Shown here: positions 41,219 to 61,600 of the stretch, piece by piece | Layout: each line of letters opens with the position of its first letter | Position numbering within the stretch: position 1 is the first letter of the stretch | Assembly: GCF_964204645.1 (NCBI RefSeq) | Contig: NC_134031.1 | Span: forward strand, 12,004,501-12,068,500 | Length of the DNA: 64,000 bases | Direction of reading: 5' to 3' | Origin: Tubulanus polymorphus | Lineage: Eukaryota; Nemertea; Palaeonemertea; Tubulaniformes; Tubulanidae | Program-made: the position numbers and the translations under genes | Notes under the pieces: generated by a model | What the model saw: the letters and a program-made list of their open reading frames with translations, nothing else | Databases searched by the model: none | What the model was told of the DNA's origin: nothing

Positions 41219-41427
41219 TTATTTCGTTTTCTGCTTCTTCGAGATAATATTATGTAGCCTCGTTCGAACCTGAGGCAAAGTTCGGCTACCACCAAGTTCT
41301 TCAACTACTTTTCTCAAGTCTACTGCTGGTGCCATTCGCTTATTATTCAAATAGTTATGCAATATCTTAAAAAAAATATCTGTTTCTCCCTTTGTCCAGG
41401 GTGCCCTCTTAATACGTGACTTCTCAT
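41219..41427 (-). CDS. Last exon: Myb/SANT-like domain and stop
   Basis: Acceptor TTTGTTTCAG|AT. Encodes SRIKRAPWTKGETDIFFKIL, then HNYLNNKRMAPAVDLRKVVE and VRTRLHNIISKKQKTK with stop TAA. The W-x-x-x-E spacing and three helices with R-x-x-x-x-x-R-x-x-x-N look like a divergent Myb/SANT DNA-binding fold. A similar basic domain commonly ends animal proteins with this recombinase type, from memory. Confidence 0.75.
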
Positions 41428-44400
41428 CTGAAACAAAATCATATAAAAATGCTACACAAACCATTGCATCAAGACTACTGATAGGTTCTCACAATAGGCC
41501 CCATTTCCCCTAGGATTGTTATACCGTCCATAAGGTGGTTTAATCACTATGGACCCTATCCATGAACTTACTTTGCGCTTCAGATTGGTTAGTTTCCATC
41601 TTTGGCGGAACTTCTGCATCGACCATGTCATTGTCATCACTGTCATCACTGTTTTCACTGTCTTCACACTCAGTCCACTTATCGGCATAATCCAAGGATA
41701 ATGGGAGTGCTAAAACGTTATCAATGAATAAATGCACATGTACACATACACACACACGGGTGACTGCTGTCATAGCAGAGAATACTAAAATATTTAATCT
41801 ATCAGTAAAGTCAGACTTACCATCGGGATCAATATCCTCCAATGACTTTCCTTTGAATCTTGCCATAATGCCATTTTCGGCAGCCAATAGCACCTTCGCT
41901 ACCTTCGCTTTTTCAACGAGTGAAGATTGGAGGCAATATACATCTGCGTGAATTTTCACATCGTGCCCCATATGATCAGCCACCATCTTCAACTCGTTGG
42001 GCTTCATAGACAAAATCTGAAGTTATAAACCCAAATACTGGCTTTAGGGCTTTCATCCATTTCAAATCACTTCACAATATAATTTCCATTCACAAGTATC
42101 ATTATAGCCGATCATTGATTTATTATAATCATTGCTTGTTATGTCTTTCGAAGACCAGAGCTTTACCTTCTTTATAGATATTCTTGATGAATGAAGGTTC
42201 TATTTTATATTCTTAAAAATTTCATTCACTAATACATACAGGGCTGGAAATTAGGCTTGTATGATAGTACATGTAAAAGCACTTCATGATAAGGTATGTC
42301 CTGATACGGATGTTTTAGGCCTATACAGGATCCGATATCAGCACTTGTCTATTATCACTTGTCATCCTTTTATGATAGGTTTTATATACTGGTTAACTGA
42401 ATGTAGAATTGTGGGACATACATAAATAGGAAAAATCACTTCATGGTCAGGTAGTGTCTTGATATGATGGGTTTTATATGTCACTTAACTGGATGTAGAA
42501 TTGTGGGACATACATAAATAGACACTTCATAAATAGGTAGTGTTCTGATATGATGGGTTTAATATGCTATTTTACTGCATGTAGAATTGTAGGATATATA
42601 TATAATGGGAAAATCCTTTCATGATCAAGTACTGTCTAGATGATTACATGACCTTAACGGTCACATGCCCTCTAAATTTCAGTAAGTAATTAACCTAATG
42701 ATTCTTTTGAATATAGATAACACCTGATATCAGGAAGACAGAAAAAAATCCCCCATATACATGTAGTCTTAAATTGTCAGGTTATTAATCAGGTAATATA
42801 AATATACAACATTTATAATTGTAATACTGTGGTTTGTATTTTAAAGAGGTTTGTAATGCTTGCAATAAGACTAATCCTAGTTCATTGGTAAATGATAAAC
42901 CTACTTGTAGTGTAGTTGCAAAGAAAGATCGGAGCTTCGTCGATCTAATTCGTTCAGGTGCATTCAGTCCGGGACACAATTTTGTCATTTCACGCATTGC
43001 AGTACAACCGTCAAGTGGTGTGTCAGCACGTTTCCTAAAATGAATGATGGATTTGCAATGCTTGCACAAAACCTGTCACGATATGAACTAAAAAAGGTTC
43101 AGATTGTATTGCTTTGTAAAGTATATACTGTATACAAAGACATTTTTCTAAAAAATGGCTGCATGGCCTGGTAAGCACTAACTTATTTGATTATTCAGCA
43201 TGTAGATGCCCACGAACAAAACTATATCAGTTGTGATGAGAGATTAAGATTTTTATCAGGACTATTAATCAATTGACATTCAAAAAGGGAATGATTGTAC
43301 CTTAATAATAATAAAATAAACCTTGCAATAATCGAATCCATTCAAGAAACATTCAAAATCCGTATTGCAATTGTTAATGGGTTAATGTTATTTGAATAGG
43401 AAAGTGCAAACACTGTATAAATCAGAAAATAGCATTCTTCCTAGAAAGACCCACATAGCTTTATCTGTGAAACTTTACACTGACATTTCAGATAGACTTC
43501 TATCCATCTTCAGAGTTATATAAAAACTCTTCTAAATCGCTGAAGATGGATAGAAGTAAAATCTATCCAAATTGTCAATGTCAACAGATATACGTTGTTG
43601 AATGTTCTTATTATACACGCTATATACACGTCTTTTATACACGTCTTTTATACATGCTAAATAGAATGCCACAAGTCTAATTGATTTCAGAATTGATGTT
43701 ACCTAGCAAAAATGAAGTCACTTGTACTTTGTCTGGTATCGAGGATATGTTCGATAGCTTTAACCATCTTCTCAGTAAGCAGAATGTATACACCTCGAAT
43801 ACTGCGAGTGCTCTTCCCTCGGATTTCTATTACACGCATTCTACAAAAAACTCTCCAAAATCAACCCAACATATCTTGTAAATTAGATAAGAGCATATGA
43901 CTAAGACAATTTTAAAACAACAATTACCGTTTGACCAAAAGCTGCTCAGCTAGAGACAGTGATTGCAGGATCTCTTGATTCTGATCGGCATCCGGCACAA
44001 TATTTTCGAAATCGCTCATGATCATTTCTTCCACTTCTGATATCCGCCTTTGGTTGAAAAGGACTATACGGACAAGAACAGCATAAGCAAGATGTTTCCA
44101 CTGTTTTGAAGTAGGCTCATGTATCATCAACGCTTTATCAATTTCAGAGTCGAGCCAATCTTTAAAGACTACTAAGTCATCTGCCACTGGATGTGTATTG
44201 CCTTGATTGAGTTTCCTAAGTTTAATCCTTCGATTAGCAACACACGAAACAGTATTGTTCCAATGGGCCCGATAAACTACTTCGAAATCTCTTCCCTCTT
44301 CTTGCATAATTTTGTCTCCTTCAAAAATCCCCATGCTCATTTTGAGGACAATGCAATGTTTGATGTAAATCCCCAAATTTATTGCCACACTCGGGGAATC

Positions 44401-47400
44401 TTTTTCCAAAGCTAACTTCTTAACACATTTGACTATCTGATGGAAATGTGGCCCTCTCAGGTACGAGGAAAGCGATATCCAGTTTTCTTCGCCATTGTTC
44501 TCGTTCAGGGCTTTCAGTAGCATACCGAGTAAACGGACCTTTGTTCTCAAGTTTGCTAGGTCTTTTCGGCGCTGCTCCTTTGCAGTGCCTAAACGCGAGT
44601 ACAATGACAAAGCAAATTCACCAATTAATTCGTCTTTTTCGCAAATGCCAGGAATGCCAGGGTTTGCAACTGTTTCTCGCATTCTGCTGAATATCAAGTT
44701 TAATGCAACCATATCCTCATCGATTCTTGGTACAAATGGTGATAGCATGTTTCGAGAGGTTCTTATGTAATTGATGTCTGGTTGTTTTGCCATTGGTTTG
44801 AAGTGGCAACGTGTCGCATGCTCGGAAAGGCATCCCTTGTAGAAAAAACCCTTACAAAATTCGCATGGTACGTAGTCCACTGCATTTGGTGGTTTATCCG
44901 TTTTATTGGGTCTACGGACAACGACCAACGTACCATGTCCTTCTTTTATCACTTTACAATTGTGCCGAAAGTTTCCTTCATTCTGAAGTAAGCGCATATG
45001 TTTTTTTTTTTCATTTGGATCGCGTATCAGATGGTACTTTATAATTTCTGGTTCAGACGCGTGAATACTGCACAAATGCGAGGATATTTTCGAAGTAAAC
45101 ACACGCTTACAATACAAACAATAATCTGCCTTTCGGTAGTCCCGCTTGCCATCTACTGACTGGTATGTCGGAACAGTAACATGTTTCAAATGAGCCGACA
45201 GTCTTGACAGATAATCTCCAAAGTCTTCTTCCTCAATATCGTTATCATTTGGATCAATTTCATGGAGATTATCATCATCACTATCACATAGATCGTCATC
45301 AGGAATGTAATCATCTTCAGAATCTGATATACATTTTCTTTTTTTCCGCTTTTTTGGAATGTCAACATCAATTGACTGATCTTCAGAGTCAGATGAGTCA
45401 ATTTGCCTTTTTTTCTTTATAATTGCATCCTGTTGTGAAGAGGTTCCAGCTTTCGGTTCAAATACATCTTTTGGCAGTAAAGGGGCAAAATGATCCGGAT
45501 TCCAGTGTCCAGGTTTAAGTTCTGAATGTGTAGTCCACATTACGAGTAAAGGTGCTTGCCTCAATGTGCCAGTCAAATTTTTTCTTGGATTTAATATATG
45601 GTTCATTATAGGCACACGATTATCCAATAACCCATTAACCGAGGGGTATACTGATCTTATCCTCCTATCAATAACTGTTGCGAGTGCCTGTATTGTCAGC
45701 ATCGAAGAATAACTGTTGTGTATTGCACAAGCAATACATGCATCTGCGAAGGATGGTGAAATCAAATCGAATCCAAATTCGATACTTCGAGTTTGATAGA
45801 AGTCAGAATTCTCAACCATTTCGATACAAGTGCGAACACGAAGTTCAGTTGCTAGATCTTCACACCCACAAAGACCGACTGATACTGCATTGAACAAACA
45901 GTTACCATCACCAGATACATCTGCAGGCATGAGCACCCCATTTACCATATCACCACATTTCTGCATAATTTCTAATGACCTGCCATGTACCATCAGTTTT
46001 CTGTCCAAACACTTATACTCAAGTTCCCGTATCCTACTTGCAAAATAGCCAACAGTAGTTTTCAGATTCTCATAGCTTTTCTGTGCACTCAGAGTGAGCA
46101 TCTTCAGAATGTTTGAGTAATCAATAGTGGTAGTAGCTGAAGATAAAATAAAAGACATCTATCAAGTGTTAATGAATACCTAGGAAACTACCACCAAAAT
46201 TTAACATGTTTGGTGTTGCAGATCTATTCTTATGAATTTAAATCAAATCTGGTAGACCTAGCCATTTTACATGTACCCAATTCAATACAATCAAAAGTCA
46301 ATTTTCCGGCTTCTCAATAAAAATCTTGTCAAAGTTGTATCTAAATCCAATATCTAAAAAACAAATATCCTACTGAACTGAATTTTTGACTTTTTGACCT
46401 CGTAGAAACTGTTGAATTAATATTCACATACATTGATAACATCTTTGCGTTATTTCATGTTATTTTTGAAGGCATCATTGGACTACAAGTTTTTATCACT
46501 CTAACCTCTGTCTAACAATACTTCAATGTTCAATTCCTGCTGGTGCGAATACACAAACTATTTTCCATGAAAATCAATGAAATGACAGAAAATTTCATGT
46601 GCTTTTTCACTTTGCAATAGATAATAGGTACAAAACTGAATGGTTCCAAAGTAAATTTCAAATTTCCAAAGTAAATTTCAATGTTCAAATTAATCCTAGT
46701 GGGGAGAACAATATCGGATAATTTCTATTCAACAAAACAAATTCAACATAAATAACAACAACATAAATAACAAGTTAAAATTGTTGGTACCCTCCTTAAA
46801 AAAAAAACCATTCCAACCATGAGCGAGGACTGGTGAGACTAAGATGACTCAAAATTTGCCTGATCCAAACATATCTAAAGATCTAGAAATTGAGACTACA
46901 GATTACAGAGACTACTACAGAGACTACGCCATTTTCCTCTGATTGATCCAATTTTTCCAGTAGTAATAGGCTCTGGGCAGAGATACATATATTATATATA
47001 CCAAACATCAAACAAGTTCTCCATGAAAACTTTTGTTGAACAAATGCTGTTGGTCACATATCTTGAATCTGATAAGACCAGTTTTTGAGCTGCAGTTGTC
47101 TCAAAAGTACTAGATACATGTATTAAGACAATCCTTTAAAATATCTCCAAAGCTTCCTAAAATGCTTTGATTCTACCTATGGATGGACAATTGACACTAG
47201 AACGCAATATGCCTAATACAACTTTAGAACAAGATTTTTCAGTTAATGTGTAAGATTTTTCAGTTAATATGCACCTTTTTAAGGTAGATAAGATCATAAC
47301 GTTCACTTACCGCAGGTTCCCTCCTTGTTTTCATAAAAAAATGGTAATTCTTCATCGCTATCATAGTCATGTGGCAGAAAACCTAAATAGATTAGTTTCA

Positions 47401-50400
47401 ATTATTTCAATTATCCATACTGGCATAATTTTTCGGCATTGACCCTCCCCCTTAGTATCTACGTGTTAATGACACAAGCTATGCTCAACACTTTCAACGA
47501 CCGAAGGATATTTTTTATGAAATAGGGAGTGTAAAGTAATATGGATTGCAATTTATTTTTATATCACAGTTTTTGATGCATTTTAGGACATGTCTTGTCC
47601 ACAAAGTATGTGCTCCTTGAAAGACAAAAGTTCGTACAATGTGCTCTAATCCCCACCCACAAAAGAAGGGAAACCACTTTTACATGATTTCACTCTCTGA
47701 AGACCGATTGCATTTTGACTTTCTTCTCGCAAGGCATTATCTTGCAAGTCGATCGTTTTCCTTACACTCACAAAATATGAATGTTTAGGATGAACAAAAA
47801 CCAGGTTTAAAGGTATAGTACACTTCAAATGTAACGTACTTATTATAGCTTGAGATATCGAAGATTCAAGTAATTCCTCGCCATCTGAAAATTCTAAAAG
47901 TAGAGAAAAGCCAAAACATCTCAAAAACTATTTGAAGAAAATATATATTTCAATTATCAGTGGGTAAGTAGTGTTAGCTAGTCCAATTTTGGGAATAAAA
48001 CAAATTCCAAAGATAACTATATTGGCAGCTCATTGATGTTCAATCATTCAAATAGCTGATTATTGGAAATGTGCATCTTGTGAATAATAAAGCTATGTAA
48101 CTATCAGTAACTGCATAAATACGGTAGATATCATCGATACAGCTATTAAATTGTGAACAACTATAACTGCTTATGCAAACAAGTGTTATCTTACCAGAAC
48201 AGGTGGATTCAGAATCATTGTCAACATCACCAGAAGGGCCACATGTCAATGCATCATCTTGAAAAATAAATGATATGGTGACAATTATTGCTGCATGTTA
48301 CAAGTTAAAGAATTATGCAATACGTTAATTTACCAGAGCAGGTAAATTCAGAAACTTTCTTTATATCATCACATCAATACATTATCTTGAAAATCAAATG
48401 ACAGATATAATGATACAGCAACCTGACAATTATTGCAACATAACATAAGTAAAGCATGCAATGGTGATATAATGTATTAGATTATAATGTAACATAGAAT
48501 TGTGATGCATAAAATTGTTCAAATTCTTCATGAACAGGAAAGGTCTATTTCAACTTGTTTGAAAAGGATATTGGGTTTGGGATAGTGTCCTGATATGGGA
48601 TTTATATGCTGAATGTAGAATTGTAAGATATGCATAGGTAGTAAAATCACTTCATCATTAGGCAGTATCCAGATATTGTGGGTTTTATATGCCACCTAAC
48701 TGAATGTAGAATTGTAGGACATATATGAATAGTAAAATCACTTCATCATTAGAGAGTGTCCCAATATGAAGGGTTTTATATGCCACCTAACTGAATGTAG
48801 AATTGTAGGACATATATAGACAGTAAAATCACTTCACAATTAGGTAGTGACCAGATATGATGGGTTATATATACTACTTAACCAAGTACAGAATTGTAGG
48901 ACATACATAAATAGTAAAATTATTTAATGATTAGATAGTGTCCTGATGTGAATGGTTTTATATGCCACTTAAGTAAATGGAGAATTGTAGGACATATGGT
49001 GAATCTTTTCTCATTAAGGTAGGATAGGTTTTATATGCCCCTTTACTAAATATAGAACTTTTAACACATATGAATAGAGAAATAGAGTTTATTTACCAGA
49101 AACTGTGAATTCAGAAATTTTCTTTTCACCAGAACACTCACGAATCAATGAAATATCTGTAAAATAAAATGACAGATACAATGATACAGCAACCTGTTGA
49201 CCACTATTACTGCATTATACAAGCTAAAAAGTTACATAATGAGTAAACTTACCAGAACACGTGAATTCAGAAACTTGTTTTGAATCATCACTGGAACATT
49301 TACTCGTCAATACATTATCTAGAAAATCAAATGACGGATACAATGATACAGCAACCTGTTGACCACTATTACTGCATTATACAAGCTAAAAAGTTACATA
49401 ATGAGTAAACTTACCAGAACACGTGAATTCAGAAACTTGTTTTGAATCATCACTGGAACATTTACTCGTCAATTCATTATCTAGAAAATCTAATGACGGA
49501 TACAATGATACAGCAACCTGATGACCACTTTTACTGCATTATTCAAGCTAAAACGTTACATAATGAGTAAACTTACCAGAACACGTGAATTCAGAAACTT
49601 GTTTTGAATCATCACTGGAACATTTACTCGTCAATACATTATCTAGAAAATCAAATGACGGATACAATGATACAGCAACCTGCTGACCACTATTACTGCA
49701 TTATACAAGCTAAAAAGTTACATAATGAGTAAACTTACCAGAACACGTGAATTCAGAAACTTGTTTTGAATCATCACTGGAACATTTACTCGTCAATACA
49801 TTATCTAGAAAATCAAATGACGGATACAATGATACAGCAACCTGTTGACCACTATTACTGCATTATACAAGCTAAAAAGTTACATAATGAGTAAACTTAC
49901 CAGAACACGTGAATTCAGAAACTTGTTTTGAATCATCACTGGAACATTTACTCGTCAATTCATTATCTAGAAAATCTAATGACGGATACAATGATACAGC
50001 AACCTGTTGACCACTTTTACTGCATTATTCAAGCTAAAACGTTACATAATGAGTAAACTTACCAGAACACGTGAATTCAGAAACTTGTTTTGAATCATCA
50101 CTGGAACATTTACTCGTCAATACATTATCTAGAAAATCAAATGACGGATACAATGATACAGCAACCTGCTGACCACTATTACTGCATTATACAAGCTAAA
50201 AAGTTACATAATGAGTAAACTTACCAGAACACGTGAATTCAGAAACTTGTTTTGAATCATCACTGGAACATTTACTCGTCAATACATTATCTAGAAAATC
50301 AAATGACGGATACAATGATACAGCAACCTGCTGACCACTATTACTGCATTATACAAGCTAAAAAGTTACATAATGAGTAAACTTACCAGAACACGTGAAT

Positions 50401-53400
50401 TCAGAAACTTGTTTTGAATCATCACTGGAACATTTACTCGTCAATACATTATCTAGAAAATCAAATGACGGATACAATGATACAGCAACCTGTTGACCAC
50501 TATTACTGCATTATACAAGCTAAAACGTTACATAATGAGTAAACTTACCAGAACACGTGAATTCAGAAACTTGTTTTGAATCATCACTGGAACATTTACT
50601 CGTCAATACATTATCTAGAAAATCAAATGACGGATACAATGATACAGCAACCTGTTGACCACTATTACTGCATTATACAAGCTAAAAAGTTACATAATGA
50701 GTAAACTTACCAGAACACGTGAATTCAGAAACTTGTTTTGAATCATCACTGGAACATTTACTCGTCAATACATTATCTAGAAAATCAAATGACGGATACA
50801 ATGATACAGCAACCTGTTGACCACTATTACTGCATTATACAAGCTAAAAAGTTACATAATGAGTAAACTTACCAGAACACGTGAATTCAGAAACTTGTTT
50901 TGAATCATCACTGGAACATTTACTCGTCAATACATTATCTAGAAAATCAAATGACGGATACAATGATACAGCAACCTGTTGACCACTATTACTGCATTAT
51001 ACAAGCTAAAAATTTACATAATGAGTAAACTTACCAGAACACGTGAATTCAGAAACTTGTTTTGAATCATCACTGGAACATTTACTCGTCAATACATTAT
51101 CTAGAAAATCAAATGACAGATACAATGATACAGCAATCTGCTGCCAATTATTACTGCATTATACAAGCTTAAGTTATTTCATGAGTTTACTTACCAGAAC
51201 AAGAATCATGATTTTTTTTTTCACCAGATTTGTGTTGACGAAAAGACTTGGAAGTCAATACATTATCTTGAAAATGAAATTACAGGGTGTTAATACAATA
51301 CCTAGAGTAGGTAATTTCCCAAAATATAGGCTTACATGTTGCCAGTAGACCATCTTGAATGTGATCCATGAAAATTACATGGTTTTATATCAACCTCATT
51401 TTGAGTGTGTCAAGAGAAAGTAAAAAATCGACAAAACATGTATGCCTGGTTACTGTCTTTTTTCCAATCCTACCGTTCAATTTGTAGGGAAAGAAATCAA
51501 ATTACCTGCCAAGGGTAGAAATAGGAAAATTGCAAGGCGGGTTCAAAAAGTAAATACGAGGCATTTTCGGTTAAAGCAGCCATATCAAATTCGTTAAGGG
51601 GGGTCCCTCCATCTAGGGTTAGATACACTTTTGAATAAATCAACCCTTAAAGATGAAATTTCTGAGATGTTAAATTTATAGGTTTAAGTTATCTCTGTAC
51701 GAAGGGCAACTTCAAAGGGAAGGCACGAGTCTAGACCTTCGAGACCACCCGCTTGATACGCCCCTGCATGCATTTCAAAGATCATGTTTACTTCATGAGA
51801 ATGGATTATTTCTAACATAAATAATAACCAATTTCATTGATGTTAAAAATATATTTTTATCAAACGATACATACTTAGACCATCAGGAAATTATAGCACT
51901 GTATAGTATTCACCTTAAAACAAAACATTTATCATGGTGGGTGGCCAATAGGACTGAACCTAAGTTTTTTTACACAAAGAATACATGCTTAACATTGCTC
52001 ATTATCTAAAATATGCATTATGAGATAATTCAATGAAACAAAAGGGAACCATAAAAATTGAAAAGCATACAACAGATATATATATATAGAATATATATAA
52101 GGTTAGAATATATATAAGGTTAGGCCTATCACATGCAAAATGATTCAAATTCGTCTATTTCTGCTGTTCTGGTGGACGGCTCAACAAAGTATACCGGTAA
52201 ATGTATAAACTGAGTTTATGGACATACAAATCTTATAGAGAAAAAGAGCAACATTTCTGAGGGGTGGATGCAAGCTGGATTTATATGTGCATAATAAAAG
52301 GCATAATTCAACTACCCGCCCTTGGTTGTGTTCCAACCTAATGCTTCTAAGCCAATACTGTATCATTCACTTATACAAATTGGGTAATGATAGTTTATGG
52401 TCGTTGGTGTATCAAAATGAATCATCTACCATCATAGGGCATACCTATAAGAAGCAAGTTGCATCTAACATAACCTATCTTATCTTCAAAGTCCAATGAT
52501 ATTTATTAACCGCAGAATTAACACATATTCCTGATAGACACCCTCAATTCAGATTCATGCACAGTTATCACACACAGTACATGAAGAAAATCTCATGGCG
52601 CAAATGTAGCCTGTATACAGCAAGTTTTTATGTAAGCCATGAAATGCAAGGCAAATCTGAAATTTACATTTGAATATGATAGACTCATTTTGCTTTTATT
52701 CTCCATGCTTAAACCAAATTCCATCTACATAGGCCTAATGACAATCGCAAGCTTCAGCATGCTGGGTGTACTTTGCAAGTTTGACTCAATCTAGAAAATT
52801 TTAATCCCAACAGGTTAACAAGCTTACCTGAGGCATTAAGTTCTTTTTTGTTAGAAGCCTATTTATATGTTGAATACAAAAATAATTTTCCAGAATGGCA
52901 TAATGGAAGCAGTGAAGAAATCAGCAAATAAGCAAATGTAGCTCATTCATGCAGCACAGAAATACAATATGGTACCCAAATGCATCAGTAGAAACAAAGA
53001 TACTACACGGCGTATCTATAGTACAATGATTAGTTGTAGAGGAACTTTTATCGTGATTAAGAAATTGATCAGTCGATGTTCTTAGGATCAGTACATACAC
53101 ACAGAGTAGGGTGAGGGGGTTTGAAAATTTGTATTAAAATGTCTATGGTTGTGTATGGGAGGGGGTTTGCATTTATAAACTGCTGTATGCACCATACTCC
53201 ATGTAGTATGATCATTGATGTTGGACCATCGTAACTCATAACCAAAGTTTAATTTTTTCAACACCAGCATAAATCATTTACTGATAATTCATTAATAAAG
53301 ACAAGCGTTACGAATCATAAACTGCTTTCTTCTCGGGACCCGCTGTCAAGGATAATTGGAGATATTGAGGTTATGTTCACGATACTTTTTTTTCAATTGA

Positions 53401-56400
53401 CAACCTCAGTCGTCATTCTGATAAAAATTACAAGCTTTGAACTTAGGGCTAATTCTTTGATGCACAAATGCTTGCATTAGAGGTTGTTACTATAAGGCAC
53501 TAAAGCGTATACAAAAAGTATGGATGTATGGTGAAGGGGAGGGTAAGGTTCTAACTGAATGAGAGCTTCGCTGCAACAAAATTGGATGAAAATAAATCAT
53601 CATAATTTACCTGTCTCCACCAATAATCAGTCACCCCGTAATCATACCGCAATTCTGTTTTGGGGGGTATGTCCTTAATAGCAAAAAATGCAATATGGGG
53701 CCTTCCTTCAGATATGACGGTTTTGGCTTTACAGTTTTCTTTGCCACCCCACCCATCATTGATGAGCCGTCCCAAACTACCATCATCAATTGAGGCATCA
53801 ATGCTGAAATGGTAAAAGTCATATTTAGAGTATTCAATTAGGCCTAATATACTTTAAGAAGATGGGTGGTATCAAATTATGATACAGGCCTACAGGTAAC
53901 AGTTAGGCTTTGAATGACTTATTTTAGTTAAAGTGTAAACTAAGTAGCCTGATGGGCAATATCTGGTTAGAAAATCAATAGACCTACATACCACAGAGAA
54001 CTGAACTTTTTGTCTTGAAATTCAAAGACATATGTATCGTCATCCCCGATTTCCTTCACATCACGGAGTAGCCCACGATATTCCACCAAAAAATCCCCTC
54101 TACAAACTGCTTTCTTTGTGAATAATCCATATCCTTAATCAGAAAAAAGTATTATCTTTGATTAAAAACCATTCCTTCAGGTCCTACATTAAAACCTAGG
54201 GTCCAGGGACACCATGCCCAGATGAGAAAAGGTTTGAAATGCTCAACCATCTGGAAATGTTAATATTCAACGTCTGGTGAACTACAGAAACCATGACATA
54301 AATTTTGCATTGATTGTTTATTTATGTCTTTACTATGTATTGTGGTAACAAAATATGCCAATGTATTAATAGGTATGATATGGAAATACTCAGTTTCTGC
54401 TATTAAGTCAAGGAAGCTACCGATATAGGTTTTTGAGGATTTCAGACTGAGATTTTTGAGCTATATGGGCACCAAAAAGGTCACAGGACGGACTTCTTGT
54501 GTCTGATCAACTCAATTGTTTTAATGCTGATGGGCCCCTGGGCATTAAAAATATTATTTGAAAGATCAAGATAATTGAAGCGTCTTAAAAGATTTCCCTT
54601 GAAAACATCAAAATCTGTAAAAATGCTGATTTCGGCAAACAGAAATCTGCCATCTTGATTCTGACAGGACCAGTCTTTGGGCTGTAGGTGTTTCAGGGTA
54701 ATATATGTATAAACCAAACATCAATCCATGTGTTTTCTAACTTCCCAAAATAACTGGATTCTGTCTACGGACTGACACAACAGATATTCTATAAAAAAGT
54801 GGATATCATACAGATGCAGCAGTAATTTAGTAAACTAGTGGTCCAGGGACACCACGCCCACTTGGGAAGTGGTTAGAAATGCTTAACAAACGGAATATTC
54901 AACGCCCCCTGGTGAACATATTAAGAAAGCAATGACCTTACAACTCACCACAATCAATGATGGAACATGTCATGAGCTACAATTTTGTAATTGATTGTGG
55001 TTACAAAATATCCTTAGAGACCAATACAATATGAAAATACTAATATAATATAATAAAAGTTATTTAGCTCTTCAATGCCCCTGGTGGCCTAGGGCCGATT
55101 CTTTTATGCAGTACGGATAATCCGGACGCTCCATTTCCATTCTTTTATTGATCAGGTGACTATTTCTGGAGAGTTCGGAGAGTCCATTCTCTCCAATCTG
55201 TCGACCGGTGTGATTGCGGAGAGACCACGTGACAAAATGGCGACGCATGAATTTTGCCTCCTAAAACTCAGAAAAGTTACGGAAGCCGCCATTTTGATTC
55301 TCAACAACTATTCCATTATGCACAAATCAGGATATTCAATCCGGAGAATACGGACTGCATAAAAGAATCGGCCCCATAATCATAGAATATGTCACAAGAT
55401 ACAATTTTGCCATTCATTGTGGTTACCATACCAATGACCTTGAAACTCATACAAAATATCAATAGGTACCAATTCTGTAATTCTGTATGTAATTCTATAT
55501 TCAACTCTCCCTGGTGGTGAGAACAAAAACCCGGGTAACCCCAATTCCACGTGAGGAGATGAATACTATGACAGCGATACTATAGGCCTATATCAAATAT
55601 CAAGACTATAAGTCAAAACTTGTCCATAGTTTCCTTCAAAAACCTTTTTCTGAGGACTGATGACACGAAGATGGTCACTGATTGCATCACGCTTGACTGA
55701 TCAAAGTATCTGTCTGATAGGCCTGTGTAAGAGCCCTTCTCATAGTATAACCAGATCTCGGAATTCAGGCCAAAAATGACCTTGGGCATAAAAAAGGTCA
55801 CATGATGGCCATGTTAAGTCTGATCTACACAATTTTTCTTATGCTGATGCACCGGGGATACAAACAGATGTGAATGATCAAGATAATTGATCAAAGGGTT
55901 TCAAAATTTCCCTTAATAACATCAAAAATATGTAAAAAGTGCTGATTTTGCTGAACAACAATGGCAACCAGTCGGCCATCTTGATTCTGATCAGGCCAGT
56001 TTTCGGGCAGAAGATGTATCTAGATACATGTAAAAACTAAAGATCAAGACAATCCATTGAAGCGACTTCAAAACTTCCCAAAAGAACTTGATTCCGTCTA
56101 TGGACAAACGGACGACAGATGAAAAGTGAACGCAATAGTCCACTGGGACTTAAGTCCCAAGTGGGCTAAAGATTATGTTGTCCTCATTATATATCAAAAA
56201 CACTTCTCGGCCTATAGGCCTCATTAGGTTTAGGATAGGGTTGGGGTCTAGAAGGTCAGGAGGGTTAGGGTTTGATAGGGTTAAAACATTCCATTTAGGT
56301 ATAATTTAGCCTACCTATTTCGCTATTGACAACTTTTTTTTCGAATGCCTCTTCTGGATCTTTGCCAAATTTAATAAATTCAAGAGCCACCTGACTTGGT

Positions 56401-56417
56401 GTCATGCGTCTCGGCAT
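41219..56417 (-). CDS. SET - micro-exon linker - OTU - zinc finger - tyrosine recombinase - Myb-like fusion gene, 27 exons
   Basis: Exons joined by GT-AG sites with matching phases: 56417-56315, 54133-53992, 53803-53611, 52858-52828, 51266-51195, twelve 66-bp exons at 162-bp steps (51100-51035 down to 49318-49253), 49156-49097, 48257-48195, 47884-47840, 47382-47311, 46136-43928, 43840-43703, 43034-42905, 42016-41821, 41709-41572, 41427-41219. The total is 4593 nt, exactly 1531 codons with stop. Domains: KMT5A-like SET (1-146), Ser/Asp/Cys repeats (about 147-524), OTU-like DGNC...PDHF (about 600-745), zinc fingers (about 864 and 948), Crypton-like recombinase (about 1000-1430), Myb/SANT-like end. 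Probably nuclear. It may be a domesticated or multi-copy Crypton-derived gene. Exons are my reading of the sequence; transcripts would be needed to confirm them. Confidence 0.8.
41572..41709 (-). CDS. Acidic linker exon
   Basis: Acceptor CGTTTTAG|CA, donor CAAA|GTAAGT, phase 1-1, 46 codons. Encodes a Ser/Asp run (EDSENSDDSDDNDMV), probably unstructured and a CK2-type target, between recombinase and Myb-like domain. Confidence 0.75.
41821..42016 (-). CDS. Recombinase exon with HMGH motif and Tyr nucleophile
   Basis: Acceptor ACTTCAG|ATT, donor GATG|GTAAGT. Encodes MKPNELKMVADHMGHDVKIH, then ADVYCLQ. The H-x-G-H box followed nine residues later by Tyr matches the C-terminal catalytic box of tyrosine recombinases (LGH...Y). 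Then KAKVAKVLLAAENG and KFKGKSLEDID-like sequence (here RFKGKSLEDID), typical of Crypton-like animal proteins. Confidence 0.85.
42290..42640 (-). repeat. 91-bp satellite family, intronic tract 1 (~3-4 units)
   Basis: GATGGGTTTTATATG...GAATGTAGAATTGTGGGACA recurs at about 90-bp steps (42400, 42489, 42575). Reverse complement of the 58.6-61.7 kb array. Confidence 0.8.
42905..43034 (-). CDS. Recombinase exon with K-x-R (HxxR-equivalent) box
   Basis: Acceptor TTCATTTTAG|G, donor CTACAA|GTAGGT. Encodes KRADTPLDGCTAMREMTKLC, then PGLNAPERIRSTKLRSFFAT and TLQ. S-T-K-L-R-x-x-x-A-T corresponds to the H-x-L-R-H-x-x-A-T box of tyrosine recombinases; the Arg is kept, and the usual His position is Thr. 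Confidence 0.8.
43035..43702. other. Intron with an 18-bp perfect inverted repeat
   Basis: ACTTCTATCCATCTTCAG (about 43495-43512) and CTGAAGATGGATAGAAGT (about 43541-43558) can form a hairpin with a 28-base loop. The rest is AT-rich. Confidence 0.7.
43703..43840 (-). CDS. Recombinase exon, beta-hairpin region
   Basis: Acceptor TTTTTTGTAG|A, donor GCTAG|GTAACA, phases 2 and 2. Encodes MRVIEIRGKSTRSIRGVYIL, then LTEKMVKAIEHILDTRQ and FIFAR. The I-x-x-R-G-K segment fits the strand pair that carries the recombinase catalytic Lys, followed by the helix and FA end of this domain. Confidence 0.8.
43928..46136 (-). CDS. Main exon: OTU-like protease, two zinc fingers, recombinase N-terminal half
   Basis: Acceptor ATTTTATCTTCAG|CT, donor AAACG|GTAATT, 735 full codons. 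The frame is open up to an ATG at 46158, but the acceptor at 46137-46138 and matching phase 1 argue that this ATG is intronic. Order: coiled start, VSGDGNCLFNAVS (OTU catalytic Asp/Cys) with WNPDHFAPLL (likely catalytic His); a nuclear-localisation-like KKRKKRK between acidic tracts; finger 1 CLYCKRVFTSKISSHLCSIH; NEGNFRHNCKVI; finger 2 CEFCKGFFYKGCLSEH; helical core-binding domain; then LVRIVLFNQRRISEVEEM with the first catalytic Arg (R-x-S-E). All four domain types are readable without frame breaks. Confidence 0.88.
46159..47310. other. Intron
   Basis: AT-rich, with a short duplication at about 46650-46690 (CCAAAGTAAATTTCAA twice). No gene. Confidence 0.5.
47311..47382 (-). CDS. Acidic exon upstream of the OTU exon
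   Basis: Acceptor CTATTTAG|GT, donor TGCG|GTAAGT, phase 1-1, 24 codons: FLPHDYDSDEELPFFYENKE then GTC. It joins the OTU exon in frame (G+CT = Ala). Confidence 0.7.
47840..47884 (-). CDS. 15-codon exon
   Basis: Acceptor AATTTTCAG|AT, donor AATAA|GTACGT, phase 1-1. Encodes DGEELLESSISQAII. It has the same DG/DN start as the repeated exons, so probably an older member of that series. Confidence 0.65.
48195..48257 (-). CDS. Divergent repeat exon, 21 codons
   Basis: Acceptor TTTTTCAAG|AT, donor TTCTG|GTAAGA, phase 1-1. Encodes DDALTCGPSGDVDNDSESTC plus S; it aligns with the array unit at both ends (D-[DN]-x-L-T ... T-C-S). Confidence 0.75.
48334..48385 (-). pseudogene. Dead repeat exon (52 bp, out of frame)
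   Basis: Still flanked by AAG and GTAAAT and still begins ATAATGTATTGA like the array exons, but has lost 14 bp. Its length is not a multiple of three and in-frame stops appear at once. If spliced in, it would break the protein, so it must be skipped. Confidence 0.75.
48560..49080 (-). repeat. 91-bp satellite family, intronic tract 2 (~5-6 units)
   Basis: GGTTTTATATGCCACCTAAC with GAATGTAGAATTGTAGGACA recurs at about 91-bp steps from 48611 to 48990. Same orientation as tract 1, inverse of the 58.6-61.7 kb array. Confidence 0.85.
49097..49156 (-). CDS. Divergent repeat exon, 20 codons
   Basis: Acceptor TTTTACAG|AT, donor TTTCTG|GTAAAT, phase 1-1. Encodes DISLIRECSGEKKISEFTVS; the ISEFTxS end is shared with the array unit. 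Confidence 0.75.
49169..51135 (-). repeat. 162-bp tandem repeat array (exon plus 96-bp intron per unit)
   Basis: ACCAGAACACGTGAATTCAG recurs at 49251, 49413, 49575, 49737, 49899, 50061, 50223, 50385, 50547, 50709, 50871 and 51033, an exact 162-bp step each time. Shared variants (TTATTCAAGC, AAAACGTTAC, CAATTCATTA) 486 bp apart show a three-unit block duplicated within the array. Confidence 0.97.
49253..51100 (-). CDS. Twelve tandem 66-bp micro-exons, 22-residue repeat
   Basis: Exons occupy 49253-49318 plus multiples of 162 up to 51035-51100. Each has acceptor TTTTCTAG|AT and donor TTCTG|GTAAGT, is phase 1-1, and encodes a unit starting DNVLTSKCSSDD and ending SKQVSEFTCS. Ten copies have Val at position 3; those at 49415-49480 and 49901-49966 have Glu. 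Exons and introns are equally conserved, indicating recent spread or homogenisation by unequal exchange. The resulting linker of about 264 residues is rich in Ser, Asp and paired Cys, with S-x-x-D (CK2-like) sites, and probably spaces the SET domain from the OTU/recombinase half. Confidence 0.85.
51195..51266 (-). CDS. Divergent repeat exon, 24 codons
   Basis: Acceptor TTTTCAAG|AT, donor TTCTG|GTAAGT, phase 1-1. Starts DNVLTSKSFRQHKSGEKK and ends HDSCS. An A10 run inside is in frame. First member of the series in transcript order. Confidence 0.78.
51267..52827. other. Intron
   Basis: AT-rich; ATATATAAGGTTAG is duplicated near 52090-52125. No exon with fitting phase seen. Confidence 0.45.
52828..52858 (-). 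CDS. 31-bp exon linking SET domain to the repeat exons
   Basis: Acceptor CATATAAATAG|GC, donor CCTCAG|GTAAGC. Phase 0 in, phase 1 out: ASNKKELNAS, the only step that connects the SET exon to the array in frame. Its polypyrimidine tract is weak, so this is the least certain exon. Confidence 0.55.
53611..53803 (-). CDS. SET domain exon 3 (C-terminal half)
   Basis: Acceptor TACCATTTCAG|C, donor GACAG|GTAAAT. Encodes IDASIDDGSLGRLINDGWGG, then KENCKAKTVI, GRPHIAFFAIKDIPPKTELR and YDYGVTDYWWRQ. GRLIN...NC-x-x-K and ELRYDYG are the cofactor and Tyr motifs of KMT5A-type SET domains. The usual Asn-His-Ser is Asn-Asp-Gly, an unusual change. Lacks the typical final W-L end of KMT5A and continues into the linker. 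Confidence 0.85.
53992..54133 (-). CDS. SET domain exon 2 (N-terminal half)
   Basis: Acceptor TGATTAAG|GA, donor CTGTG|GTATGT. Encodes YGLFTKKAVCRGDFLVEYRG, then LLRDVKEIGDDDTYVFEFQD and KKFSSL. G-x-G-[LV]-F-T-x-x-x-[IV]-x-x-G-x-F-x-V-E-Y-x-G is the classic SET opening. Phases join both neighbours. Confidence 0.85.
54190..54780 (-). mobile_element. Repeat R2, partial copy 4 (inverted)
   Basis: Reverse-orientation blocks of R2 (GGTCCAGGGACACCATGCCC at one end, ATGTGTTTTCTAACTTCCC at the other). Confidence 0.65.
54838..56167 (-). mobile_element. Repeat R2, copy 5, end to end (inverted)
   Basis: Runs from GTCCAGGGACACCACGCCCA to CTTAAGTCCCAAGTGGGC, the two termini seen in plus copies, so this defines the element at about 1.05 kb plus a MITE at 55092-55375. 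CTCF-like cores on the minus strand at 54903-54914 and 55077-55089. Confidence 0.7.
55092..55375. mobile_element. 284-bp MITE with TIR GGGCCGATTCTTTTATGCAG
   Basis: Left GGGCCGATTCTTTTATGCAG and right CTGCATAAAAGAATCGGCCC are perfect 20-bp inverted repeats, continuing imperfectly to TCCGG. Inserted in R2 copy 5. Non-coding. Confidence 0.85.
56315..56417 (-). CDS. First coding exon of the SET-recombinase gene
   Basis: Begins MPRRMTPSQVALEFIKFGKD, then PEEAFEKKVVNSEI; donor AATAG|GTAGGC, phase 1. The M-P-x-x-x-T-P-x-Q helix resembles the N-terminus of multi-copy KMT5A-like proteins. An acceptor (GTATTTTTCAG|GTGAG) lies 5 bp upstream of the ATG, so a 5' UTR exon further up is expected; a donor-like CAAG|GTGAGG at about 56537 is a candidate. 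Confidence 0.75.
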
Positions 56418-58600
56418 CTCACCTGAAAAATACAACCAAGAATAAGGTGCTATGATAATGGGCAGGCTTATTTGTATCTTTGCCCTATTAACCGAGATAT
56501 TAATACTGCAAATTGGGCAGAACACAAATCCTCACCTTGAAACATAAAAAAAATAAAAAAGAATTAAGCGATTGATTTTTGCAAAAAAAAAACCATTTAG
56601 ACCAACGGCCACGTCACTGCATATCATATCAATAGCAGTAGCACTTGATATAAATTACAAAAATTGGCTGTCAAAAATATACAATAAAGAAAAAATTCAT
56701 TGTGCAACACCGGTGCTTAGTTCCAAGCTTCAAGGCCTAAATATGCTAGAATTCTGTATCACTATAGGCCTACTACTAGGGGGCCTAAATAAGTGAAACT
56801 AATTAGTAAGCAGGCATGGCTATAGGCCGGTCCATGTCCTACAATGAACCTGTAACAATGACAGGTTGGTACCGGTATTTGGATTATAATCTAGGCTGAT
56901 TCAGCAGGTTAGCTGTAGCCTACTGTGCAGTGGTAAAAGTATCAGCCTGTAGCGCGGAATATCAGTCAGCACATCAGGTTTGGTTTCTATGATGATCGGA
57001 CTGTTTTACAAACCACGACAATTCCTATACCGGTAGGTATTTGTAGGCCTATTTGTATATACTCTAGGGCCTCTCTAAGTTCTGGATATTATCAACGTTA
57101 GCAGTAAAAGTACAAATTACAAGCCTATCTGAGATGACTCGGTCAAGACTAGAGATAGGGCCTAATACTACTAGTAAGGTCAGATGTAGTCTAGTACCTA
57201 GCCGTTGTTTTCCAAACAGGTTGTAGGTAGGGAACCGTAACAACAACTGTTGAACAGCAGTTGTTACAGTCTGTTCAGACTAGTACTAGGTCAGATGGTA
57301 TTCAGGCCATCAGGGATTAGCTGGGAGGAGGCCTTTATTTTATTAGATAATAGCTTACCACCAACCGATTACTAAATACTAACAAGGACAGGTTACTCAC
57401 ATCCAATGTGCTAGTGCTGGTGTACTATAGGCCTATAAGTATAGTTGAATGTGTGTGTAAATGAATTTAGCGTTTTCTGCAATCCTGATTAGAAATGCGG
57501 TACAATGTATGTCAATATAAGAAATTTTGTAGCCAGAATTTTAATGAAACGGGCGTAAATGTAGTAATGAAAATATTGCACGTCCACCGGTTGTTTACAA
57601 CGCAGCAACGACCTTCAACGTAGTCTGAATACCGGTCGTTGTTACCGGTTCCCTAGAACGACGGCTAGGTACAAGACTACCTTCAACGCAGCAACGAACT
57701 AACCGGTAGCCCTAAATACCGAACAAAACCGTTAAATACCGACTTTATGTCACTAATCAATTTTAGATGCGGGCATAAGGCTAATTTATTTTCGTGTGAA
57801 ATCGATCTTTTTGGGATATTTCGCTTAACTTTTTGAACACATACCCTAAATTGGTCTTAACGACCAGTGTACGGTAACTGTGCAGCCTGAATAAATCCTC
57901 GTTTTATAGCCATTTTAGACTGTATTGAATTATTGCCAAAGGGTTTTCATTTTCTCGTGTCGAAAACAGAAAAGATCAGCCATTTTTTGAAATTCTAAGA
58001 TGTTTCTTGTGTTTCCGTGCCTACGAACCATGATTTTCTTTGAATAATTTGCAAACATTTTCAAATGGCAAGGGCCTAGGCATAGAAAAATATTGTTAAA
58101 ATTGATTTACGTAACGGTAGTTCATTAAATGGGGTCTATTTTCTCTAATTGAAATGAGTTAAAGAAGACTTTTTTTTAGTAATCCTCCAATGCAAAACAG
58201 TTTAAAATGGATAAAACGATGATTTACTTACAGTTTCACTGGTCGTATTAAGACCTAATTGAGGTACCCGGTATGTGTTGAAAAGTTTAGTTTATAGGGA
58301 ACTCAAAAAATCGATGTCAGACCAAAAAAAAATTAGAATTTAGGAACGGACATGCAGATATGTCAGGCATACACTGCTAGTCTATTCACTTTTGTGTTTC
58401 ATCAGTTTTCTCGAGATAATTTGTAACTTTTGTGAGCAAATACTTCAAACTAATGCCATTCAAGCCAGAACTGTGCAGTCGGACATCGTTTTTGTATTCA
58501 TCTTAAACACTGTATTGAAGGATTGTTAAAAAGTCTTCTTAAACTTATTTATGACAGAGAAAAGAGACTTCACGAATCGCACCGGTTCTTGAAAGATCAT
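56418..58600. other. Presumed 5' flank of the SET-recombinase gene
   Basis: No coding sequence recognised. Contains an imperfect palindrome GTAACAACAACTGTTG / AACAGCAGTTGTTAC at about 57237-57268, ACCGGT-rich sequence at 57590-57720, and TAGGCCTA words. Promoter not located. Confidence 0.4.
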
Positions 58601-58609
58601 AATTACATC

Positions 58610-61600
58610 AGGGCAATATCTAATCTTGCATTGATTGTACTAGTCATGTCCTACAATTCTACATTCAGTTATGTGGCATATAAAACCCATCATATCTGGA
58701 CACTACCTAATCATAAAATGATTTTACTATTTATGTCTATTACTACATATGTCCTACAATTCTATATATACAATTCTATATCGCTGGCATATAAAACCCT
58801 TCATATTGGCACATTTCGTAATGATGAAGTGATTTTACTATTTTTATATGTCCTACAAATCTATAATTAGTTAGGCAGCATAGAAAACTCGACTCGTAAG
58901 AAACTACCTACGGTAATCATAAAGCATTTTACTATTTATATATGTCTTACAATACTGCATCAGCTAAGTGCAGTACAAATTTATATTCAGTTAGGTGGCA
59001 TATAAAACTATCATATCAGGGCGCTATTTGTGGATGTCTTACAATTCTACATTCAGTTGCGTGGCATATAAACCCACGGCATCAGGACACTGCCTGATAA
59101 TTTTACTATTCGTATATTTCCTACAAATCTACATACATTTTAAGTGGCGTATAAAACCATTCATATTAGGACAATGGACACTCTCTAATTATGAAGTGAT
59201 TTTACTATTTATATATGTCCTACAATTCTACCTTCAGTTAAGTGGCATATAAAACCCTTTATATTGGGACACTCTCTAATGATGAAGTGATTTTACTATT
59301 TATATATGTCCTACAATTCTACCTTCAGTTAAGTGGAATATAAAACCGTTTATATTGGGACACTCTCTAATTATGAAGTGATTTTACTATTTATATATGT
59401 CCTACAATTCTACCTTCAGTTAAGTGGAATATAAAACCCTTTATATTGGGACACTCTCTAATTATGAAGTGATTTTACTATTTATATATGTCCTACAATT
59501 CTACCTTCAGTTAAGTGGCATATAAAACCCTTTATATTGGGACACTCTCTAATGATGAAGTGATTTTACTATTTATATATGTCCTACAATTCTACCTTCA
59601 GTTAAGTGGAATATAAAACCCTTTATATTGGGACACTCTCTAATTATGAAGTGATTTTACTATTCATATATGTCCTACAATTCTACATTCAGTTAAGTGG
59701 CATATAAAACCCTTTATATTGGGACACTCTCTAATGATGAAGTGATTTTACTATTTATATATGTCCTACAATTCTACATTCAGTTAAGTGGAATATAAAA
59801 CCCTTTATATTGGGACACTCTCTAATGATGAAGTGATTTTACTATTTATATATGTCCTACAATTCTACCTTCAGTTAAGTGGAATATAAAACCCTTTATA
59901 TTGGGACACTCTAATTATGAAGTGATTTTACTATTTATGTATGCCCTACAATTCTTTAATCAGTTTCGCAACATATAGAACTCATCATCAAATTTATATT
60001 CATTTAGGGGGTATTTAAAACTATTCATGTCAGGACACTACCGAATCCTGAAATGATTTTACTATTTGTGTAGGTCCTACAATTGTACATGATCAGTTGC
60101 GTGGCATATAAAACCTACGGCATCAGGACACTGCCTAATGATTTTACTATTCGTACATGTCCTACAAATCTACATACATTTTAAGTGGCGTATAAAACCA
60201 TTCATATTAGGACAATGGATAATCATGCCATTATTTTACTATTTGATTATGTCCTGCAATTCTACATCCAATTAAGTGGCACATATATCGGGACACTGCC
60301 TAATCGTGAAGTGATTTCACTATTTATATATGTCTTACAATTCTACATCCAGTTAAATGTCATATGAAAAAAATCGTTCATACCTATTGGGACACTCTCT
60401 AATTATGAAGTGATTTTACTATTCGTATATGTCCTACAATTCTACATACATTTAAGTTGCGTATAAAACCATTAGTGTCAGGACACTAGATAATCATGGC
60501 GTTATTTCACTATTTAAATATGCCCTGCAATTCTACATTCAAGTAAGTGGCATATAAAAACATTAAAATCCGGACACTACCCAATCATGCAGTAATATTA
60601 TTTATCAAAAATCCATAGGAGCAAAAACAATACAAATCTCATTTTCTAATGAGTAATATATATTTATTATAGTAAACGTTTTCGGGAGTTACATTATCCC
60701 CTCTTCAGGCATAGCGCGCAAGTGATTAAATTTTCATATAATACGTTTTTAGATAATTAACTACTAGTCAAATATATTCACTCAGTAATTTAGATTGTGT
60801 ATAATTAATTATCTTTATATTGTAATCATCTTGTCACTCAGTTAATTGAAATTGTTTGTAATTAGCTTCGTCCTATTCTATATAAATACCAGTATGATAT
60901 GAACATTTAATCACTTGCGCGCTATGCCTGAAGAGGGGATAATGTTACTCCGGAAAACGTTCGCTACAATAAATATATATTACTCATTACAAAATGCGAT
61001 TTGTATGGTTTTTGCTCCTATGGATTTTTAATTATCTTGACCCTCTACCTAAGAACTAATATTATTTATATATGTCCTGTAATTCTACATTACGCTGCGT
61101 GGCATACAAAAGCATATCAGGACACTGCCTAATCATGAAATGATTTTACTATTCATATATGTCCTACAAATTTACATACATTTAAGTGGCGTATAAAAAC
61201 CCTTCGTATCAGCCCACTAGATAATCGCGACGTTATTTTACTATTCATTATGTCCCGCAATTCTACATTCAGTAAAGTGGCATATAAAACCCACCATATC
61301 TGGACACTCCCTAATGATGAAGTGATTTTACTATTTATATATGTCCTACAATTCTACATGCAGTAAAATAGCATATAAAACCCATCATATCACACACTAC
61401 CTAATTATGAAGTGATTTTACTAATTGTATCTACACATCTACATTCAGTTTATTGGCATATAAAACTATTCATATCTGGACACTACCTAATCATAGAGTT
61501 ATTATAATATTCATATTACACACTACCTAATTATGAAGTGATTTTACTAATTGTATCTACACATCTACATTCAGTTTATTGGCATATAAAACTATTCATA

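What the first reader, a model, noticed from the sequence alone, without database searches (positions are those of the whole stretch)
49097..51266. Exon-intron unit amplified into a tandem array of phase-symmetric micro-exons
Twelve 66-bp exons recur at exactly 162 bp, each with its own acceptor and donor and each phase 1-1, so any number can be spliced in without changing frame. Introns are as similar as exons, and a three-unit block (486 bp) is itself duplicated, pointing to recent unequal exchange. The result is a length-variable Ser/Asp/Cys linker of 22-residue repeats between two enzyme modules. A coding minisatellite in which each unit is a complete splicing cassette is unusual.
Basis: seen in the sequence. 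Interest (0 to 1): 0.9.

Follow-up and report, generated by a model that had tools for sequence, protein, structure and literature searches.

The report
Transposon gene with expandable exon array
A row of twelve nearly identical tiny exons, each with its own splice sites, lies inside the single recognised gene of a young 24-kb jumping element of a ribbon worm; the number of exons differs between otherwise almost identical copies, and fish relatives carry comparable repeats in the same place.

Summary
Confirmed and enlarged. On the minus strand twelve 66-bp exons recur at exactly 162 bp, all phase 1-1, with older relatives on both sides. NCBI's model of a sister copy joins such exons as predicted. 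Window 39469-63387 is a 23.9-kb mobile element found five times, on five contigs, at 0.08-0.17% divergence, with the same ends, (TA)n on both sides and different flanks. Its only recognised gene encodes SET, the array, OTU protease, zinc motifs and a tyrosine recombinase. The copies carry 12, 12, 12, 11 and 16 array exons. A diverged relative in the same genome has an unrelated array (three 153-bp phase 1-1 exons) between SET and OTU; another has none. In vertebrate relatives 70 of 80 models have repeat linkers; in the loci compared, isoforms differ by whole units. Best reading: an expandable, skippable linker in a Crypton-like transposon protein, changed by unequal exchange. Unresolved: how SET (ends phase 0) joins the array (phase 1), real transcripts, and function.

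The parts
39469..63387 (-). mobile element, 23,919 bp, given on the strand of its gene; left end CTGAAAACATACTATTAACGGGG, right end CCCCGTTAATCGTACATTATCTTAG; flanked on both sides by (TA)n
   Evidence: five copies 23,452-24,559 bp, 0.08-0.17% divergence, same ends, different outer flanks
39245..39468 (.). (TA)n on the left flank
63388..63460 (.). (TA)n on the right flank
56315..56417 (-). predicted first coding exon (MPRRMTPSQV...)
   Evidence: aligns near the N-termini of vertebrate SET-recombinase proteins
53992..54133 (-). SET exon, N-terminal half
53611..53803 (-). SET exon, C-terminal half, ends DYWWRQ in phase 0
   Evidence: Pfam SET 4.1e-7; KMT5A chains E 8e-13 for the joined exons
52828..52858 (-). 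best candidate for an adapter exon (31 bp, phase 0 to 1); unproven, strong donor, weak acceptor
51195..51266 (-). diverged array exon, 72 bp, phase 1-1
49253..51100 (-). core array: twelve 66-bp exons with eleven 96-bp introns, period 162 bp, phase 1-1 (DNVLTSKCSSDDSKQVSEFTCS)
49253..50224 (-). two 486-bp three-unit blocks, 1 difference
49097..49156 (-). diverged array exon, 60 bp, phase 1-1
48334..48385 (-). dead array exon, 52 bp with in-frame stop; skipped in the NCBI model
   Evidence: one search had it one base off
48195..48257 (-). diverged array exon, 63 bp, phase 1-1
47840..47893 (-). linker exon, 54 bp, phase 1-1
47311..47382 (-). linker exon, 72 bp, phase 1-1, DYDSDEE motif
43928..46136 (-). 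large exon: OTU protease, acidic DDYIP motif, two zinc motifs, start of recombinase
   Evidence: Pfam OTU 6.9e-6
43703..43840 (-). recombinase exon
42905..43034 (-). recombinase exon
41821..42016 (-). recombinase exon with GH and the presumed catalytic Tyr
   Evidence: Phage_integrase 1.1e-6 in the sister copy's protein
41572..41709 (-). acidic C-terminal exon
41222..41427 (-). last coding exon

Best explanation
The array is the expandable linker of the one recognised gene of a 24-kb tyrosine-recombinase DNA transposon of the nemertean Tubulanus polymorphus. SHOWN: anatomy, five near-identical copies with common ends next to (TA)n, exon numbers 12/12/12/11/16, an unrelated exon array at the same place in a diverged relative, and repeat linkers in vertebrate protein models. 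INFERRED: misaligned exchange or copying between 162-bp units adds or removes whole splicing cassettes; because each exon is a multiple of 3 and phase 1-1, any number, or any exons skipped in splicing, keeps the frame, so only the length and repeat valency of a probably disordered tether between the SET methyltransferase and the OTU/recombinase part change. The element probably moves as DNA by its recombinase, since all introns travel with it.
For: Exon/intron anatomy and phases. NCBI protein P0001 equals the C6 copy over 1089 of 1089 compared residues and shows three 66-bp exons joined, then the 60-, 63-, 54- and 72-bp exons, without the dead one. Five copies on C7, C1, C2, C6 and C12: 19-40 mismatches per 23.2-23.9 kb aligned, identical ends, different flanks, (TA)n on both sides; the 77-nt left end has 5 hits in 268 Mb (the tool calls its counts lower bounds for repeats). 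Array unit strings ABBCDDEBDFB in C7, C1 and C2; C6 has one unit fewer; C12 four more and one variant unit. Diverged relative on C2 with three 153-bp phase 1-1 exons at 434/442 bp spacing between SET and OTU. Vertebrates: 70 of 80 models with SET, linker and Zn have tandem repeats in the linker, 0 of 80 in the Zn-recombinase core; of 14 listed isoforms of one shad locus, 3 have the full 16-unit string and 11 read as that string with whole 32- or 42-residue units left out (compared by eye); five shad loci on five contigs with at most 1 of 152 SET and 2 of 720 Zn-recombinase differences but different arrays. Recombinase residues kept: R 125, K 127, R 122, H 127, Y 128 of 134 aligned, 5 of them gaps.
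Against: No transcript was read by me; NCBI models probably rest on short reads that cannot place identical exons (recalled). The SET-array junction is phase-incompatible without an adapter exon, and the candidates are weak; P0001 has no SET and begins MILVLIIN, which I could not fully derive from the DNA. A second diverged relative, sampled from its SET to its zinc part, has no long tandem repeat (L027), nor has an 8-kb stretch beside a third (L025). 10 of 80 vertebrate models, a frog's among them, show no linker repeat. The box II His of tyrosine recombinases is Thr in 124 of 134, so activity is not assured. Identity of flanking units to the core, exon against adjoining intron: 75/96, 70/87, 84/84, 73/77%, but 70/61 for the intron upstream of 51195-51266; selection on the repeat sequence is not shown. 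No empty site was examined.
Confidence: 0.78

Rival explanations
1. Neutral minisatellite that happens to carry an exon: unit number drifts by replication or recombination error and is tolerated only because the exon is frame-neutral; the linker has no tuned function.
For: In four of five comparisons flanking exons are no better conserved than the adjoining intron, and one old unit is dead; intron and exon of the core are about equally homogenised; the element also carries 91-bp minisatellites outside the exons.
Against: Repeat linkers recur at the same place with unrelated units in two nemertean elements and many fish, while none was detected in the Zn-recombinase core (0 of 80). The live linker exons keep multiples of 3 and phase 1-1 (72, 60, 63, 54, 72 bp).
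Confidence: 0.35
2. Two genes: a SET gene upstream, and an array-OTU-recombinase gene whose transcript starts at or just before the array; the array is then an N-terminal or partly untranslated repeat, not an inter-domain linker.
For: SET exon ends in phase 0, array in phase 1; no strong adapter exon; P0001 lacks SET and starts in the exon at 51195-51266; polyA signals lie between; no Tubulanus protein with both parts among the 17 hits (8000 candidates scored).
Against: Same order and strand in all five copies and in a diverged relative; vertebrate models hold SET, linker and zinc part in one protein (80 of 132 by my pattern); the window SET aligns nearly end to end with those of six fish and one frog at 35-41%; acidic DYDSDE and DDYIP linker motifs shared with fish.
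Confidence: 0.3
3. Domesticated host gene copied by segmental duplication rather than a transposon.
For: The compared reading frames are open in four of five copies and the SET translation is the same in all five.
Against: The shared segment ends at the same base in every copy, next to (TA)n, with different flanks and a 10-bp inverted subterminal match ATTAACGGGG; five left ends; near-identical loci on several contigs also in shad, and several near-identical loach models.
Confidence: 0.05
4. Assembly artefact in the array.
For: Near-identical 162-bp units are hard to assemble; raw reads not available.
Against: Arrays are only about 1.8-2.6 kb; unit-type order is shared by three copies and altered by simple unit changes in the other two.
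Confidence: 0.04

Closest known systems
Crypton tyrosine-recombinase DNA transposons (PMC3212892, passages read)
   Same: Tyrosine-type recombinase, dispersed near-identical DNA copies, no long terminal repeats
   Different: 24 kb, one many-exon gene with SET and OTU domains and an exon array; box II His replaced by Thr. A passage read says that YR is the only recognisable domain encoded by animal Cryptons
EBV IR1 (BamHI-W) repeats encoding EBNA-LP (PMC5834210, passages read)
   Same: Tandem unit containing whole exons; variable unit number; [quoted passage not shown] a 66-residue repeat encoded by exons W1 and W2
   Different: 3-kb unit with two exons and a promoter, in a herpesvirus; here a 162-bp unit with one exon (promoters not searched for)
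Schistosome micro-exon genes (PMC4350168, passages read)
   Same: Very small symmetrical exons allowing in-frame skipping
   Different: There most of the coding region is micro-exons; here only the linker, and the exons are near-identical tandem copies
Internal tandem repeats that modify human gene structure (PMC2812944, outline and passages)
   Same: Tandem repeat number changes coding sequence and splicing in recent duplicates
   Different: There repeats lie in exons or at exon-intron borders; here each unit is a complete acceptor-exon-donor cassette
Ginger1 DNA transposons (PMC2836005, passages read)
   Same: DNA transposon proteins of animals carrying an OTU protease; genes with introns
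   Different: DDE transposase and terminal inverted repeats; no SET or exon array mentioned in the passages
KMT5A/SETD8 methyltransferase (PDB hits)
   Same: Closest solved SET domain by sequence, E about 1e-12
   Different: No recombinase or array; substrate and activity here unknown

Membership tests
Crypton | tyrosine recombinase with catalytic R-H-R-Y | tested here: not met
   R, R and Y kept (125, 122, 128 of 134) but H is T in 124 of 134, P0001 included; so Crypton-like, not filed as Crypton
Crypton | multiple dispersed copies without long terminal repeats | tested here: met
   five copies; by eye the ends share only a 10-bp inverted ATTAACGGGG
Mobile DNA element | same ends at different sites | tested here: met
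Mobile DNA element | empty site or observed movement | not tested
   no second individual or empty allele fetched
Exon-bearing tandem repeat (EBV IR1 type) | each unit carries a complete spliced exon and unit number varies | tested here: met
   splicing itself only through the NCBI model of the sister copy
Micro-exon gene (MEG) | most of the coding region in very small symmetrical exons | tested here: not met
   linker exons of 54-72 bp sum to 1,113 of about 4,568 predicted coding bases (lengths)
OTU cysteine protease | Pfam OTU above cut-off | tested here: met
   27 bits against 23.3
SET methyltransferase | Pfam SET above cut-off | tested here: met
   30.8 bits against 22.4
SET methyltransferase | methylates a histone or other protein | not testable with these tools
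   needs an enzyme assay

The most novel reading that the evidence does not exclude
A broad animal lineage of SET-bearing, Crypton-like tyrosine-recombinase transposons (nemertean, fish, possibly a clam; a frog member lacks repeats) keeps re-inventing, at one fixed place between SET and recombinase, a tandem array of frame-neutral exon cassettes, so that length and valency of the linker evolve faster than any other coding part and are further varied by splicing: a built-in hypervariable region of a mobile element's protein, perhaps to escape host control or to retune the tether.
Probability: 0.5. Interest if true: 0.88.

Novelty: new variant of a known kind. Interest (0 to 1): 0.76.

Why it matters
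It gives a natural experiment: five 24-kb copies about 0.1% apart whose exon arrays already differ (11, 12, 16), so the rate and mechanism of exon-number change can be measured directly. It also points to an apparently undescribed group of animal transposons joining a histone-methyltransferase-type domain to a tyrosine recombinase. The full-text search for both 'tyrosine recombinase' and 'SET domain' listed 8 of 8 papers, none of them on such a fusion by title and start of abstract; three wider searches listed 3 of 3, 20 of 197 and 15 of 51 papers with the same outcome. The library holds open-licence papers only.

Tried and rejected
Rejected: (1) P0001 as another haplotype of the window locus: it is the C6 copy, 0 differences in 1089 compared residues, and its contig length equals that of C6. 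(2) Faster evolution of exons as positive selection: the exon/intron contrast is explained as well by the edge of homogenisation, and one of five comparisons goes the other way. (3) Pfam hits inside six-frame translations of the array (SDH_protease, Zn_ribbon_Brz, PspAA, Sec31, MAP2_projctn): sums over identical repeats, no stretch passing alone. (4) A PDZ hit in a fish array: the same effect. (5) An adapter exon: two weak candidates in the window at the thresholds, none at those. (6) The start MILVLIIN of P0001: only MILVL found, in the exon at 51195-51266. (7) Homology of nemertean and fish repeat units: none above my threshold; several fish units are related to each other.
Full report
OBSERVATION. 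The array reads on the minus strand. Twelve exons of 66 bp, exactly 162 bp apart, run from 51100 down to 49253; each is bounded by TTTTCTAG and GTAAGT and begins and ends in phase 1 with the junction codon G|AT, giving DNVLTSKCSSDDSKQVSEFTCS. Ten of 12 exons are identical; two carry V to E. Eleven units (exon plus 96-bp upstream intron; the edge unit left out) differ pairwise by 0-7 bases; of 28 non-overlapping 486-bp block pairs the best differs by 1 base, the others by 2-35. Tandem Repeats Finder gives 12.7 copies, 97% matches; the exon-end motif occurs 15 times, at most 0 times in 100 shuffles. Beyond the twelve lie older units: 51195-51266 (72 bp), 49097-49156 (60), 48195-48257 (63) and a dead one, 48334-48385 (52 bp, stop) (the script had the last two one base off). 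Against the core, exon and adjoining intron are 75/96% (49097), 70/87 (51195, downstream), 84/84 (48334) and 73/77 (48195) alike; the intron upstream of 51195 is only 61% alike, less than its exon.

GENE. The large ORF found one strong database match, P0001, 'uncharacterized protein LOC141907100 [Tubulanus polymorphus]' (its cluster has 7 member sequences, which I did not see singly). A spliced alignment of P0001 to the window gives ten exons from 49156 to 41222 with GT-AG borders (that was a condition of the script); the linker exons of 60, 63, 54 and 72 bp are all phase 1-1 and the dead unit is skipped. P0001 itself contains three 66-bp exons in a row. Pfam: SET, OTU, and in P0001 Phage_integrase at 1.1e-6. 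The window SET is closest among solved structures to KMT5A and aligns nearly end to end with the SETs of six fish and one frog relative at 35-41% identity.

THE ELEMENT. After thirteen unanswered tries, a search of the window's own genome (268 Mb, 77 contigs) placed the window at C7:12004501-12068500 and showed the ORF in full on C1, C2 and C6 and, frameshifted, on C12, besides many diverged relatives (58 matches in all, a lower bound). I fetched about 34 kb around each of the four others. Collinear homology to the window stops at about 39.4 and 63.4-63.5 kb in every case; shorter matches outside (for example to window 1-665, 9636-9976, 14800-15366) are scattered and not collinear; matches under 250 bp were not listed. 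The ends are shared by all five: (TA)n, then CTGAAAACATACTATTAACGGGG ... CCCCGTTAATCGTACATTATCTTAG, then (TA)n (short in C2's right flank), then sequence that differs by eye in each copy. Lengths are 23,919 (C7), 23,808 (C1), 23,703 (C2), 23,452 (C6) and 24,559 bp (C12); pairwise mismatches 19-40 per 23.2-23.9 kb aligned, i.e. 0.08-0.17%, gaps not counted. The 77-nt left end has 5 hits; SET exons of this type lie at the same five places, with ten weaker matches elsewhere. P0001 is the C6 copy (0 differences of 1089); C7 differs at 4, C1 at 2, C2 at 1 residue; C12 is frameshifted in the large exon. Pfam scans of six-frame translations found no other credible domain; not covered were the minus strand of 39469-40000 and one minus-strand frame of 47800-52000, and domains cut by introns could be missed. 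So the array sits in the single recognised gene of a young mobile element. Whether (TA)n is the target or partly the element's own end was not settled, as no empty site was seen.

ARRAY CHANGE. Core exon numbers are 12 (C7), 12 (C1), 12 (C2), 11 (C6) and 16 (C12). Coding the units by sequence, C7, C1 and C2 are ABBCDDEBDFB, C6 ABBCDDBDFB, C12 ABBCDGEBDFBBDFB (the edge unit is left out). C6 has one unit fewer; C12 has four more and one variant unit (G), while only tens of point changes separate whole elements. At least two length events in so small a divergence support unequal exchange or slippage of whole cassettes; which of them cannot be told.

RECURRENCE. A diverged relative on C2 (SET 9614172-9614384, 41% identity; OTU match 9609224-9609877, 51%) has between them a 434-bp unit in 2.8 copies at 90%, with three 153-bp exons, phase 1-1, encoding ENVTATSAALIEKPSEKQDFCNDDREPTFIGVTASPAASNDDRESTTIIGE or close to it; the middle one has GTCTTT where the others have the GTAATT donor. 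A second relative (L027, C2:15.37 Mb), sampled from SET to zinc part, has no long tandem repeat, nor has an 8-kb stretch beside a third, where the SET may lie outside (L025): one of three sampled has an array. In vertebrates, 653 proteins match the Zn-recombinase part of a minnow relative at E up to 1e-10; 120 were listed. Of 132 proteins examined (isoforms and paralogues, not independent), 80 had SET, linker and zinc motif by my pattern; 70 of the 80 have a tandem repeat in the linker, 58 with about three or more copies; the Zn-recombinase core had none (0 of 80); a first, stricter pattern gave 57 of 67. Of the 52 others, 16 showed repeats before the zinc motif; some of these do have SET. The frog model P0053 has no repeat. 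Of fourteen isoforms of one shad locus, X1, X2 and X13 have the full unit string and the other eleven read, by eye, as that string with whole 32- or 42-residue units missing; sea bream and sea bass isoforms differ by exactly 2 and by 1-3 units. These are annotation models, and short reads could misplace identical exons. Five shad loci on five contigs share SET (at most 1 of 152 differences from the first) and Zn-recombinase (at most 2 of 720 in any pair) yet the longest isoforms examined list 8, 15, 16, 17 and 17 units. A sixth shad locus is only 53% alike. Fish units are related within some groups, not to the nemertean unit at my threshold. A clam relative has an N-terminal repeat with a period of 127 residues. 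Acidic motifs (DYDSDE and DDYIP in the worm; NYTDSDE and EEYIP in fish) place the arrays in the same stretch of the linker; by my patterns the second is in 85 and the first in 22 of 119 proteins with a zinc motif (15 more had none).

MECHANISM. Frame-neutral cassettes make the array free to expand, shrink and be skipped. The product is a Ser/Asp-rich tether whose length and repeat number vary between copies and, in fish models, between isoforms. What this does is not shown: a tunable distance between SET and recombinase, multivalent binding, or tolerated drift are all open; disorder is inferred from composition. The recombinase keeps R, K, R, H and Y in 122-128 of 134 aligned sequences but has T for the box II H in 124; hence 'Crypton-like', not 'a Crypton'.

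OPEN PROBLEM. The SET exon ends in phase 0 in this element and, as I read it, in the C2 relative; the arrays are phase 1. An adapter exon of 3n+1 bases is needed; the best in the window is 52828-52858 with a strong donor and a poor acceptor, and a first scan with stricter thresholds found none. P0001 holds no SET. So the fused protein is likely from vertebrate models and from shared order, not proven.

LITERATURE. Seen as passages: PMC3212892, PMC2836005, PMC4350168, PMC2812944 (outline 67, passages 68), PMC5834210. Everything else was seen as search listings only. The recombinase box names, the splice-site weights, and the remark on short reads are recalled.

Noticed in passing
window 58641-61722, 48609-49005, 42340-42607: A 91-bp minisatellite family inside the element: 18 copies listed upstream of the gene in one orientation and two small clusters in gene introns with the opposite consensus.
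   Followed up: partly
G000:C12:9376891-9379123: The C12 copy, which has the longest array (16 exons), has a frameshift in the large exon.
   Followed up: partly
proteins P0036-P0041, P0112, P0124: The Zn-recombinase tree of 33 chosen rows conflicts with species: a goldfish protein falls among percomorphs (69-77% identity over 700-1000 residues) and an icefish protein with minnows (70% over 748); horizontal transfer or old paralogy. Quick tree, no bootstrap.
   Followed up: partly
window 39534-39710: An 88-bp unit duplicated at 98% just inside the left end of the element.
   Followed up: no
L026 1363-1947: A 34-bp minisatellite, 17 copies, between array and OTU of the diverged relative.
   Followed up: no
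window 32169-33170: A 333-residue ORF on the minus strand outside the element, Lys-rich, unidentified.
   Followed up: no
P0008, P0009: Two of the OTU-type matches to the query carry transposase domains as well (PF10551, PF00872), suggesting that this OTU type is shuttled among transposons.
   Followed up: no
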